Assembly (NCBI GenBank): GCA_900638155.1
Contig: LR134495.1
Span: 1,054,001-1,118,000, forward strand
Direction: 5' to 3'
Source of the DNA: Mannheimia haemolytica
GTDB taxonomy: Bacteria; Pseudomonadota; Gammaproteobacteria; Enterobacterales; Pasteurellaceae
DNA: 64,000 bases
The position numbers and the translations under genes were made by a program. Position 1 is the stretch's first letter; each line of letters starts with the position of its first letter. Positions 33,060-37,665 of this stretch are shown here, piece by piece. A model generated the notes under the pieces. It made no database searches, was not told where the DNA came from, and was given only the letters and a program-made list of their open reading frames with translations.

Positions 33060-34256
33060 TTAGCTTTCTTGCAAAATTTCAAGGGTAAAATCTAGAGCGT
33101 TGAAAAAATGCTCAACATCTTGTTGATTATTGTAATGGGCAAGTGAAAGTCGGACTGTTCCGACCTCTTCTAAATGGCGTAAATAAGGCTTGGCACAATG
33201 CTCCCCTTGGCGGATCGCAATTTTACTTTGGGTTAAGAAAGCGGCAATATCGGCAGGGTGCTGATTTTTCACCACAAAGCTAATAGTCGGTGCATTTTGT
33301 TGCCCGATAATTTGCAAATTTTGATAAGAATTTAACCGCTTGCGGGTGTATTCAGCCAAGTCATAAAGCTGACGATTAAGATCTACAAAATCCCATTTTT
33401 CGAGCCAAGCTAGCACTTGCCCAAAGCCGATAATGCCGGCGATATTCGGCGTGCCGGCTTCCAAGCGATAAGGTAACTCTGCCACAGTTAATTCACTTTC
33501 CGTAATGTTTTTCAGCATTTTACCGCCAAATACAAGCGGTCGAATTTGCTCCAAACTTTGCAATTTGCCGGTTAGCACACCGACACCGTTTGGTCCATAC
33601 ATTTTATGGGCTGAGAAAGCGTAGAAATCTGCATCTAATTTCTGAACGTCCACTTGCTCTGAGCAAACTGCTTGAGCAATATCTAACACAATTTTAGCAG
33701 AGCAAGATTGGCGGATAAGCGGGATTATTTGTTCCGCTGGCTGACGAACTCCTGTTACGTTAGAAACTAAATTAAATGCAACAATTTTGGTTTTTTCTGA
33801 TAACGCATTTTTAAGGGTTTCCAGCTCAATTTCATACTTATCATTAAGTGGCAACACCACGAGTTTCGCTCCTGTACGCTGTGCCAACTGCTGCCAAGGA
33901 ATAAAATTAGCGTGATGTTCCGCTACTGAAATCACAATTTCATCACCTTCTGCAATTTGATGCTCCAAGCCATAAGCCACGGTGTTAATGCTTTGGGTTG
34001 TGCCGCTGGTCCAAATTACCGCCTCACGAGTTTCCACATTAAAGCGTTTCATGACCAAATCACGAGCTAATTCATATTGCTCGGTTTGTGGTAAATCATA
34101 CTGACTGCGATGCACCGAACCTGCAGAGGCGTAAAAATAGCTTGTTGCTTGAATCAGCACATCAGGTTTCAGCGTGGTAGCGGCTGAATCTAAATAGGTC
34201 CAGCCGTCAGATTTTTCAAAAAAAGGGAAATGGGTGCGAAATTGTTGGTTGAGCAT
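33060..34256 (-). CDS. csdA: Cysteine desulfurase (CsdA/SufS class II)
   Basis: A 398-residue PLP enzyme that removes sulfur from cysteine. The PLP-lysine motif DFYAFSAHKMYGPNG gives the Schiff-base Lys. EHHANFIPW and the catalytic cysteine in RQGEHCAKPYL (about residue 355, short class II loop) are present. The start YLDSAATTLKP is typical. The sulfur-acceptor partner (csdE or sufE) is not adjacent and no suf genes flank it, so the exact CsdA versus SufS role is inferred from resemblance. The gene is divergent from a small-gene cluster. Confidence 0.88.
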   Translation of the reverse strand: MLNQQFRTHFPFFEKSDGWTYLDSAATTLKPDVLIQATSYFYASAGSVHRSQYDLPQTEQYELARDLVMKRFNVETREAVIWTSGTTQSINTVAYGLEHQIAEGDEIVISVAEHHANFIPWQQLAQRTGAKLVVLPLNDKYEIELETLKNALSEKTKIVAFNLVSNVTGVRQPAEQIIPLIRQSCSAKIVLDIAQAVCSEQVDVQKLDADFYAFSAHKMYGPNGVGVLTGKLQSLEQIRPLVFGGKMLKNITESELTVAELPYRLEAGTPNIAGIIGFGQVLAWLEKWDFVDLNRQLYDLAEYTRKRLNSYQNLQIIGQQNAPTISFVVKNQHPADIAAFLTQSKIAIRQGEHCAKPYLRHLEEVGTVRLSLAHYNNQQDVEHFFNALDFTLEILQES

Positions 34257-34323: not shown

Positions 34324-34539
34324 ATGAAAAATAACTTACTCAATTATTTAAAAATCATATTATTCACTTACCTGTTCTCTCGAGTTTTGAACTATATCAT
34401 AGCACAATTTAACTTTCCTGACGTCCCTAGTCATTTAGCTATGGTTGGCTTTTTTATGGTTTTTGTATTGGCGGCTTTATTGATTATTGTTCGCTCTTTT
34501 CTGAGCTATTGGAAGAATGAGAGAAGAAAAGGAGGCTAG
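34324..34539 (+). CDS. Small two-helix membrane protein
   Basis: 71 residues. Two hydrophobic segments (KIILFTYLFSRVLNYII and LAMVGFFMVFVLAALLIIV) are separated by a short polar loop (NFPDVPSH). The C-terminus is strongly basic (SYWKNERRKGG), suggesting a cytosolic tail. I do not recognise the family. It is the first of four very small genes on the same strand, and its stop is 2 nt before the next start. Confidence 0.6.
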   Translation: MKNNLLNYLKIILFTYLFSRVLNYIIAQFNFPDVPSHLAMVGFFMVFVLAALLIIVRSFLSYWKNERRKGG

Positions 34540-34541
34540 AA

Positions 34542-34718
34542 ATGAAGATTAAAAGAATGGTGATTGTATTTTTCTGGATTATTTTAATCCCTACTACTCT
34601 TTTAATATTGAGCTACTATCCTAGTATAGGAAGGATAGAAAAATGGGCTATTGCCTTCGTAATTGGATTGGTTTATGCATTTATTTTTCGTAAAACGTTA
34701 AAAATGAAATTCTTTTGA
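34542..34718 (+). CDS. Small two-helix membrane protein, coupled to the preceding gene
   Basis: 58 residues, too short for usual ORF cut-offs. It begins MKIKRMVIVFFWIILIPTTL, has a second hydrophobic stretch (WAIAFVIGLVYAFIF) and a basic tail (RKTLKMKFF). It has a very strong ribosome-binding site, AAGGAGG, located inside the end of the previous gene, and its ATG is 2 nt after that gene's TAG. Such an optimal site argues that it is translated. Family unknown. Confidence 0.55.
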   Translation: MKIKRMVIVFFWIILIPTTLLILSYYPSIGRIEKWAIAFVIGLVYAFIFRKTLKMKFF

Positions 34719-34748
34719 ATATGTATTAATTTCTCTGGTGGAGGTGTT

Positions 34749-34955
34749 ATGTTATCATTAAATTTTAAATATACTTTATTGTTATCAATTTTATTATCTG
34801 CTTGTACTCATTCTACAGGGGGAAATGAAAAAGATAGTCAATGTTTCTCTTCTGCGTATGTGAACCGGCATATAAAAGATTCGGTTCACCGGAAAATAAT
34901 GTATGACAGATGTTTAAGAGAAAATAAGACTTATCTGATAAATAACAGTTATTGA
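34749..34955 (+). CDS. Small predicted lipoprotein
   Basis: 68 residues. The signal peptide ends in the lipobox LLSAC (Cys about residue 19), so the mature protein is only ~50 residues. It carries two further cysteines (DSQCFSS and DRCLREN) that could form one disulfide. GGAGG precedes the ATG. It is the third gene of the small cluster. I do not recognise the family. Confidence 0.6.
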   Translation: MLSLNFKYTLLLSILLSACTHSTGGNEKDSQCFSSAYVNRHIKDSVHRKIMYDRCLRENKTYLINNSY

Positions 34956-34974
34956 GTTTTAGTATGGAGTTTCT

Positions 34975-35070
34975 ATGGGGATTGTTACTGTAATTTATAT
35001 TGCATTTATTTATTTATTTATTTATTTATTTTTTTATTTACAGATTTATTTACCCGTTGTTAACATTTGA
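34975..35070 (+). CDS. Short ORF containing an ATTT repeat tract; possible out-of-phase membrane protein
   Basis: The ATG at 34975 has GGAG six bases upstream. As sequenced it gives 31 residues (MGIVTVIYIAFIYLF, then repeat-encoded Ile/Tyr/Leu/Phe) and stops at 35070. Seven ATTT units (35004-35031) lie within it. Loss of one unit, or gain of two, would put the start in frame with an open frame to TAA 35147-35149. That would add a second hydrophobic helix (IFYDIVFFCFLFAFYIL) and a KKKYW tail, ~57 residues in total and similar in plan to the upstream small proteins. The gene may therefore be in an off state. It could also be a chance ORF in AT-rich DNA. Confidence 0.45.
   Translation: MGIVTVIYIAFIYLFIYLFFYLQIYLPVVNI
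35004..35031 (+). repeat. Tetranucleotide repeat (ATTT)7
   Basis: Seven perfect ATTT units, followed by TTTT and one more ATTT. It is a simple-sequence tract of the type that slips during replication. Confidence 0.95.
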
Positions 35071-35152
35071 GTGTAGTGTAATTTTTTATGATATAGTGTT
35101 TTTCTGTTTTTTATTTGCTTTTTATATTCTTAAGAAGAAATATTGGTAATAT

Positions 35153-35266
35153 ATTCAGGGTAATGTTAATCAAGTTTTTTAACCTGTGTATGCTGTTAAT
35201 TTTATATGTTTATAAAAATTTTAAATTCCATCCTTTTATTAAAATTTTAAATTTATTGCCCTGAAT
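35153..35266. repeat. 114-bp segment bounded by 12-bp inverted repeats
   Basis: ATTCAGGGTAAT (35153-35164) and ATTGCCCTGAAT (35255-35266) are reverse complements apart from one G-U pair. The AT-rich interior holds a direct repeat AAAATTTTAAATT and no ORF. This fills the gap between the small-gene cluster and the nuclease gene. Confidence 0.6.
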
Positions 35267-35276
35267 GACAGGTAAA

Positions 35277-35945
35277 TTAATTCCTATTTTTCTGTTCTTG
35301 CCGATAAAGTTTATTGCACGGAATGCCGTCGTTGTTGCCGTCTAGCTCTTTCCAACCGCATTGTTGAAAGTAACGTTTTGCCTGTGCGTAATTGCCGATT
35401 TGGTTGCAGCTTAATTTAATTTGGCAATCAATCGTTGGTGGCTGGTTTGCAATATTTTCTGGTTTTTTGACCGCTTGTGGTAAGGTTGAGGCGTGTGTTT
35501 TTCGCCATTGGCTCGGGTTAATCGGGAATTTGTCCTGCCATAAGCCGATTTTAGCTTGCTGTGCTTGATCTTGTGCTTCGATATATTCCCGCTTTGTGGT
35601 GTAAGCCCACGCCATACCGTTTTCCACTAAGGCTAAGTTGATGTTTTTACCATTCAAATAGAGGGTGGCAAGTAGTCGCTGGTAACGATCATAGCCTGAA
35701 ACTATGGCAGTAATGTTTTGTTGAAACACGAATTGAGCCAGAGCTTGTTTGGCTTTGTTGCCGTAAGGCTGCGCTTGTTCGGGGGCATCAATATGTTGTA
35801 GCCTTATTTTTAGTGGTGTTTTATTGACCAAACAAGTGAGGGTGTCGCCATCGCTAATGCCAACGACTTTGCATTGTAACTGGCGTTCGGCGGCATATAC
35901 CGATGAGAAAAATAAGCCAAAAATTAAGGTATAAAGGTATTTCAT
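35277..35945 (-). CDS. Secreted thermonuclease-like protein with C-terminal excalibur domain
   Basis: 222 residues. A signal peptide (MKYLYTLIFGLFFSSVYAAE) is followed by a staphylococcal-nuclease fold: VVGISDGDTLTCLV (catalytic Asp), IRLQHIDAPEQAQPYG (Arg and Asp), YDRYQRLLATLYL (second catalytic Arg) and NINLALVENGMAWAY. The last ~45 residues (KRYFQQCGWKELDGNNDGIP with flanking Cys) form an excalibur calcium-binding motif. The product should be an exported, calcium-dependent nuclease. In a naturally transformable lineage it might process external DNA; that is inference. Confidence 0.9.
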   Translation of the reverse strand: MKYLYTLIFGLFFSSVYAAERQLQCKVVGISDGDTLTCLVNKTPLKIRLQHIDAPEQAQPYGNKAKQALAQFVFQQNITAIVSGYDRYQRLLATLYLNGKNINLALVENGMAWAYTTKREYIEAQDQAQQAKIGLWQDKFPINPSQWRKTHASTLPQAVKKPENIANQPPTIDCQIKLSCNQIGNYAQAKRYFQQCGWKELDGNNDGIPCNKLYRQEQKNRN

Positions 35946-37466: not shown

Positions 37467-37479
37467 ATCGTATAACTTT

Positions 37480-37665
37480 TCTCCCCTGTCCTTTTGCCTG
37501 AGCGTTTCACGCATTGTTGCATTTTCGCCTTCGGCGGCGGATTTTTATCCGCTCTCTCCAAGGGTTCGTCCAGTAACAGTCCCCGCAGTGTTCACTGCAC
37601 CTGAAAGAGTTTACCTCGTCGGTGAAATGTTAATTCATTTCTCTCCAGCTACCTTCATCCGAACA
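37480..37665 (-). promoter_or_regulatory. Tandem glycine riboswitch (gcvT type)
   Basis: On the minus strand two aptamers are recognisable. The first has GCTGGAGAGA, a variable hairpin, CACCGACGAGG, CTTTCAGGT and GGACTGTTAC. A short linker (TGGACGAACC) leads to the second: CTTGGAGAGA, a GC-rich hairpin, CGCCGAAGGCG, CTCAGGCAAAAGGACAGGGG. These match the conserved glycine-riboswitch core in both copies. It controls the AGCS symporter downstream. Confidence 0.93.

What the first reader, a model, noticed from the sequence alone, without database searches (positions are those of the whole stretch)
34975..35149. (ATTT)7 tract places a small membrane-protein ORF out of frame: phase-variation candidate
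A start codon with a good ribosome-binding site (GGAG) opens a frame that runs into seven ATTT units and stops at 35070. Removing one unit, or adding two, links the same start to a second frame. That frame stays open to 35149 and encodes a hydrophobic helix with a KKKYW tail. The resulting ~57-residue, two-helix protein has the same plan as the two small proteins encoded just upstream. Tetranucleotide slippage is the standard on/off switch in Pasteurellaceae, but the loci known to me encode surface enzymes, methylases or binding proteins, not a tiny membrane protein.
Basis: partly seen in the sequence, partly recalled or inferred. Interest (0 to 1): 0.7.

Follow-up and report, generated by a model that had tools for sequence, protein, structure and literature searches.

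The report
Microcin immunity gene carrying slippage tract
In a Mannheimia bacterium, the last of four leftover small genes, most of which look like self-protection genes against a peptide antibiotic (microcin), is knocked out of frame by a stretch of seven ATTT repeats that could switch it on and off.

Summary
In detail: ATG at 34975, seven perfect ATTT units at 35004-35031, stop at 35068-35070, second frame open to 35149. The two halves are one gene. A natural in-frame allele (P0004, 52 aa) joins the window's N-terminus to its second frame, and three other Mannheimia species carry open homologues without the long tract. The gene lies in an insertion between nuc and csdA. In two relatives this insertion is a class II microcin island (double-glycine precursors, JmjC enzyme, HlyD protein, C39 exporter). 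In the window only a lipoprotein gene, three small membrane-protein genes and a 48-bp exporter/nuc scar remain. In three other Pasteurellaceae genomes a homologue of the split gene sits 23-32 bp after a microcin precursor, so it is most likely an orphan microcin immunity gene. If it switches, it is phase-variable bacteriocin immunity, for which the paper searches gave no precedent; the nearest are the Neisseria nap peptides and the pneumococcal blpA duplication.

The parts
34975..35149 (+). split immunity-like gene ('on57' family); start ATG 34975, out of frame in this genome
   Evidence: natural in-frame allele P0004; family matches in 15 of 140 Pasteurellaceae genomes
34975..35070 (+). frame 1 product of the present tract length, 31 aa
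35000..35149 (+). frame 2, 49 aa from TTG 35000; carries the conserved FIYPLL...YDIVFFCFLF...KKK region
35004..35031 (+). (ATTT)7 tract, followed by TTTT ATTT
34966..34969 (+). GGAG ribosome-binding site, 5 nt before ATG
   Evidence: read
34749..34955 (+). p68, lipoprotein of a family that in relatives directly follows a 75-aa double-glycine precursor; orphan here
   Evidence: near relatives P0007-P0009
34542..34718 (+). p58, small membrane protein; in G033 its homologue directly follows a 111-aa double-glycine precursor, in G161 what looks like a decayed remnant of one
34324..34539 (+). p71, small membrane protein shared with G002 (76% identity); orphan in both; presumed immunity-like, no pairing evidence
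   Evidence: only a far-below-cutoff lead to an immunity family; not searched family-wide
35253..35276 (+). scar: last codons (IALNDR) of the lost C39 ABC exporter; 35253-35300 is 48/48 identical to M. haemolytica DSM 10531 at the exporter/nuc junction
33060..34256 (-). csdA-type cysteine desulfurase (aminotransferase class V), left flank of the insertion
35277..35945 (-). nuc-type thermonuclease (SNase), right flank of the insertion

Best explanation
The locus is the remnant of a class II microcin island that entered between nuc and csdA. Precursor and exporter genes have been lost; small immunity-type genes were kept. The last of them encodes a two-helix membrane protein that most likely protects the cell from a double-glycine microcin of the type still encoded in Actinobacillus-like relatives (inferred from gene pairing). 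A short ancestral ATTT run inside the first helix has grown to seven units, which puts this copy out of frame (shown). Replication slippage in the tract probably moves the gene between in-frame and out-of-frame states, so that a population would contain protected and unprotected cells (inferred, not shown). My confidence is about 0.8 that it is one gene of orphan immunity type, and about 0.45 for the whole statement including reversible switching.
For: One gene: P0004 joins the window's start and second frame in frame. The longest contigs of P0004 and of the 99%-identical lipoprotein P0007 are both 36,935 bases, which suggests one contig (inference). Open homologues lie in G001, G002 and G003. 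Family constraint: dN 0.20/dS 0.72 and dN 0.27/dS 0.64 against two relatives over 32 and 33 codons, and frame 2 has no stop before 35147. Island: C39 exporter, HlyD and JmjC_2 in G003/G004; scar in the window; nuc and csdA adjacent in G005 and in 12 of 16 other Pasteurellaceae loci. Immunity: of 17 family matches in 15 of 140 genomes, 4 have a double-glycine precursor upstream on the same strand, 23, 27, 32 and 206 nt away by longest-ORF starts, against 4 of 1019 background small ORFs with such a leader (some of those 4 may be real precursors). The partner lipoprotein follows its own precursor family at 5 of 5 places (three of the five are rows of that profile). Tract: seven perfect units, beyond chance.
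Against: Immunity has not been tested, and for 13 of the 17 family matches no precursor was seen directly upstream. The precursor profile A10 was built from the four paired places, so its search is not independent; it added only G081, whose contig ends right after the precursor. None of the 7 Mannheimia genomes searched has that precursor. Only two tract lengths are known, from different genomes, and the 3-unit one is inferred from a protein sequence. Decay in the same island (broken exporter in G001, scars in G002, interrupted HlyD and partial losses in G003) fits one-way loss. No other run of five ATTT units exists in the genome.
Confidence: 0.45

Rival explanations
1. Orphan immunity gene undergoing one-way decay: the tract expansion is a disabling slip in a gene no longer needed after the island lost its weapon, and it does not switch back at any useful rate.
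For: Exporter and precursors are gone from the window; exporter broken in G001 and reduced to scars in G002; G003 lost 8 codons of the same region and most of the lipoprotein, and its HlyD gene is interrupted; protein P0002 looks like an early-stopped allele.
Against: Seven perfect units are more than one slip from the short run of relatives. Frame 2 carries no other lesion although the gene is AT-rich, and a near relative keeps it intact (P0004).
Confidence: 0.38
2. The protein is not immunity but an accessory of the exporter, or a small membrane protein of other function that travels with the lipoprotein.
For: In G001 and G003 it lies just before the HlyD gene. In G142 and G022 it lies next to the lipoprotein with no exporter seen in the stretch fetched. 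No family library names it.
Against: Not found in G004, whose exporter genes are full length, so the exporter does not need it; present without an exporter beside it in several genomes; directly follows one precursor family in G016, G064 and G082.
Confidence: 0.12
3. The tract length is an assembly or sequencing error and the gene is in fact in frame.
For: Tandem repeats are error-prone in some read types (recalled); no reads could be inspected.
Against: The genome is a single contig rated 100% complete. The error would have to add or drop whole tetranucleotide units, unlike a homopolymer error.
Confidence: 0.05

Closest known systems
Class II microcin precursor/immunity pairs (microcin V type; Moraxella catarrhalis mcbABCI)
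   Same: Double-glycine precursor followed at once by a very small immunity gene, with membrane-fusion and ABC export proteins. For mcbI, overlap with the precursor gene and protection by the cloned gene are reported (PMC2761928, passages).
   Different: The window keeps no precursor and no exporter. The protein has no match in the family libraries searched. The island of G003 and G004 contains a JmjC_2 enzyme.
Orphan bacteriocin immunity genes of E. coli plasmids
   Different: Chromosomal, Pasteurellaceae, and one member carries a tetranucleotide tract that puts it out of frame.
Neisseria nap island
   Same: Island of double-glycine, microcin-like peptides with a C39 peptidase and an immunity-like NapI; NapR and NapC are described as probably phase variable through homopolymeric tracts (PMC11798529, passages).
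   Different: There the peptide and regulator carry the tracts, not the immunity gene; tracts are poly-G and poly-T.
Pneumococcal blp locus, blpA 4-bp duplication
   Same: A 4-bp duplication frameshifts a bacteriocin-locus gene in many strains (PMC12150690, passages; frameshifts in most genomes also in PMC4739728, passages).
   Different: Hits the exporter, not immunity; a single duplication, not a long tract; the term phase variation does not occur in either main text.
Pasteurellaceae tetranucleotide contingency loci (LPS enzymes, methylases, adhesins)
   Same: Intragenic tetranucleotide tract whose unit number sets the frame (recalled; no call).
   Different: The product here is a small immunity-type membrane protein.

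Membership tests
Class II microcin immunity protein | gene lies directly 3' of a double-glycine microcin precursor | tested here: inconclusive
   Not met in the window (no precursor). Met for homologues in G016, G064 and G082; a second G064 copy lies 206 nt after a truncated precursor: 4 of 17 matches in all.
Class II microcin immunity protein | very small hydrophobic membrane protein | tested here: met
   52-aa natural allele; hydropathy peaks above 2 in both halves; AlphaFold2 helices 2-20 and 30-51, mean pLDDT 82.8.
Class II microcin immunity protein | cluster encodes C39 peptidase ABC exporter and HlyD-type protein | tested here: not met
   Window keeps only a 48-bp exporter/nuc scar; exporter full length in G003 and G004, HlyD full length in G004. 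Best other match of the exporter in G000 is 29% identical. Filed as an orphan, not as part of a working system.
Class II microcin immunity protein | protects against the cognate microcin | not testable with these tools
   needs a bench assay
Phase-variable (contingency) locus | long simple repeat inside the reading frame, beyond chance | tested here: met
Phase-variable (contingency) locus | unit number decides which frame is read; in-frame and out-of-frame alleles exist | tested here: met
   frame arithmetic; window out of frame, P0004 in frame
Phase-variable (contingency) locus | unit number varies among strains or within a culture, reversibly | tested here: inconclusive
   Two lengths in different genomes, one inferred from protein; no strain set or reads available.
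Known anti-phage defence family | match to a PADLOC model | tested here: not met
   0 of 4 proteins (P0004, p71, p58, p68) match at E up to 0.1
TrbK entry-exclusion lipoprotein (for p68) | score above the curated cutoff | tested here: not met
   19.4 bits against cutoff 23

The most novel reading that the evidence does not exclude
Phase-variable bacteriocin immunity: a slippage tract switches a retained microcin immunity protein on and off, so that a clonal Mannheimia population hedges between paying for protection and being sensitive to microcin-producing neighbours.
Probability: 0.35. Interest if true: 0.7.

Novelty: new variant of a known kind. Interest (0 to 1): 0.5.

Why it matters
Immunity genes are usually treated as always on in cells that keep them (recalled). 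A switched orphan immunity gene would mean that sensitivity to rival microcins can itself be a contingency trait, and would give a simple read-out (tract length in isolates) of how strongly microcin competition acts among these bacteria. The comparison also exposes microcin-type islands in Mannheimia and Actinobacillus-type genomes with repeated precursor-immunity pairing, and in Mannheimia with a JmjC-type enzyme.

Tried and rejected
Family libraries: Pfam, NCBIfam, PHROGs and PADLOC give no above-cutoff or named-function match for P0004 or for p71, p58 and p68 (PHROGs has weak matches of unknown function for p58, E 0.0052, and p68, E 0.04). Weak leads (Bfi1 immunity for p71, TrbK for p68, MccV for the G033 precursor) were kept as leads only. 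Plasmids: tblastn of P0004 and of one precursor against 72,556 plasmid records found nothing. Order-wide search with A7: 3 of 394 genomes, all in the same family. Promoter/terminator scan: no excess over shuffles. Frame rescue by a -1 slip at the T7 run (35029-35035) was considered and rejected: the -1 frame meets a stop at the seventh codon after 35042, while frame 2 needs a +1 shift. A TTG at 35000 is in frame with frame 2 at the present tract length, so a leaky product lacking about the first eight residues cannot be excluded; I see no ribosome-binding site before it (read). Structure search was not run: a 52-residue helical hairpin would match by chance. p71 was not searched family-wide. 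A search for phrases meaning phase-variable bacteriocin or phase-variable immunity found 0 papers in the open-licence library; related searches were made, listings only except the papers named.

Full report
What is there. GGAG at 34966-34969 precedes ATG 34975 by five bases. Frame 1 runs through (ATTT)7 at 35004-35031 and stops at 35068-35070 after 31 codons. Frame 2 stays open to 35149. The tract is far beyond chance and is the only place with five or more ATTT units in the 2.34-Mb genome.

Where it is. The genome (G000) is a Mannheimia near M. haemolytica. DNA beside the locus is 96.2% identical over 4244 aligned bases and 95.8% over 3249 to M. haemolytica DSM 10531 (L017) and to G001 contig C40 (L097). 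I take G001 to be that strain because the csdA match lies at the same positions of contig 45 in both. The four small genes at 34324-35149 lie between csdA and nuc, on the opposite strand. In G005, and in 12 of the 16 non-Mannheimia Pasteurellaceae loci fetched by csdA (L019-L034), the aligned nuc and csdA genes lie within about 40 bases of each other; of the other four, two have nuc more than 200 aligned bases away and two gave no nuc match. So the four genes are an insertion.

What the insertion was. In G003 and G004 the same gap holds double-glycine precursors (117 aa in both, 75 aa in G004), small membrane proteins, a JmjC_2 protein, a HlyD-family protein (418 aa in G004; 357 aa plus a separate 50-aa piece in G003) and a 696-aa ABC exporter with a C39 peptidase domain (Pfam was run on the G003 JmjC and exporter and the G004 HlyD). 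G001 has a broken exporter, and its island is probably split over two contigs. G002 has scars. The window keeps a 48-base stretch (35253-35300) identical to the G001 exporter/nuc junction, including the exporter's last codons. In the window genome the best other match of the exporter is 29% identical.

The two frames are one gene. Homologues in G001 and G002 are uninterrupted, and G003 has an open one lacking 8 codons of the repeat region. A protein search with an alignment of four natural sequences returned 6 proteins. One of them, P0004 (52 aa), carries the window's frame-1 start and the window's frame-2 end, with two substitutions in the shared part. P0007, a lipoprotein 99% identical to the window's p68, has the same longest-contig length as P0004 (36,935), so they probably share a contig. 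P0007 is on 3 contigs and P0004 on 2; I cannot say what the third holds or whether it is the window's own genome. Substitution counts against two relatives show constraint on the family (dN/dS about 0.27 and 0.43, only 32-33 codons); most of that history precedes the expansion.

What the gene encodes. The natural allele is predicted as a helical hairpin, helices 2-20 and 30-51, mean pLDDT 82.8, pTM 0.51. The family profile A9 matches 17 places in 15 of 140 Pasteurellaceae genomes; two of them (G088, G090) are weak at 6e-4. Four of the 17 have a double-glycine precursor upstream on the same strand: G064 twice (gaps 23 and 206 nt, the second precursor truncated), G016 (27 nt) and G082 (32 nt) (gaps by longest-ORF starts). 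In the other 13 none was seen; 16 places were scanned as loci of their own and the second G062 match only as part of its neighbour's stretch, and ORFs under about 38 codons would be missed. The precursors resemble each other (89%, 32% and 33% identity to the first). Background: 4 of 1019 small ORFs in the csdA loci and the window fit the same leader pattern, and some of these may be real precursors of M. haemolytica. Two cautions apply. The G064 and G082 genes were noticed by reading the neighbourhood of lipoprotein matches; only G016 was found blind. The precursor profile was built from the paired places, so its five matches in 4 of 140 genomes are not an independent test; the only new genome, G081, ends just after the precursor.

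The neighbours tell the same story. The lipoprotein family of p68 follows a second, 75-aa precursor family at 5 of the 5 places where that precursor was found in 140 genomes (G004, G064, G081, G082, and a remnant in G019). Three of these are the profile's own rows and G081 reads the same as G082, so only the G019 remnant is a fully separate case. Most lipoprotein-profile matches (29 of 140 genomes, many weak) have no such precursor. The p58 profile matches 4 of 140 genomes, one weakly; its homologue follows a 111-aa precursor in G033 and what looks like a decayed one in G161. p71 was compared only with fetched loci, where it is shared with G002, and has no pairing evidence. The window therefore looks like a set of orphan immunity-type genes left after loss of the weapon, the situation described for E. 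coli plasmids (PMC12546727, passages).

How it probably works. Shown: one gene, out of frame here because of the tract, in frame in a near relative. Inferred: membrane-bound immunity against a double-glycine microcin. Inferred and least certain: slippage switches it back and forth. The main rival is one-way decay; the island is decaying across the genus and I know only two tract lengths.

Compared with what is known. Class II microcin hits have been reported from a first survey in Pasteurellaceae (1.5% of species sampled; PMC9746304, passages). In Moraxella, a very small immunity gene overlapping the precursor was shown to protect (PMC2761928, passages). Phase-variable microcin-like peptides are proposed in Neisseria (PMC11798529, passages). 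A 4-bp duplication that breaks a bacteriocin exporter gene is common in pneumococci (PMC12150690, passages; frameshifts in most genomes in PMC4739728, passages). A tract in an immunity gene did not turn up in the listings, which cover open-licence papers only. I rate it a new variant of a known kind.

Noticed in passing
L118:1500-1580 (G002:C1, from 1386940): (ATTT)20 tract about 100 bases upstream of the start of a gene for what looks like a trimeric-autotransporter adhesin (467+ aa, opposite strand; named by eye, no family search); resembles a promoter-type phase-variation tract.
   Followed up: partly
L099:5840-7009 and L100:5999-7168: A 389-aa protein (JmjC_2, PF08007, tested on the G003 copy) encoded directly after a double-glycine precursor in the microcin islands; distant sequence relative of ribosomal oxygenases. 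It might hydroxylate the microcin; a search for JmjC with microcin found 3 papers, listing only.
   Followed up: partly
L097:4033-8826 and L017:1-2500 (M. haemolytica DSM 10531): Microcin-type island with broken exporter, HlyD and JmjC genes and several small double-glycine ORFs, apparently split between two contigs.
   Followed up: partly
L101:4122-6673 (G033): Two precursor/small-membrane-protein units, each followed by a truncated HlyD start, suggesting duplication of cassettes with the exporter's 5' end.
   Followed up: no
window 37476-37571 (-): Glycine riboswitch upstream of the sodium:alanine symporter gene.
   Followed up: no
P0002: 40-aa protein identical to the M. haemolytica homologue over its first 28 residues but ending early; may be a second broken allele.
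   Followed up: no
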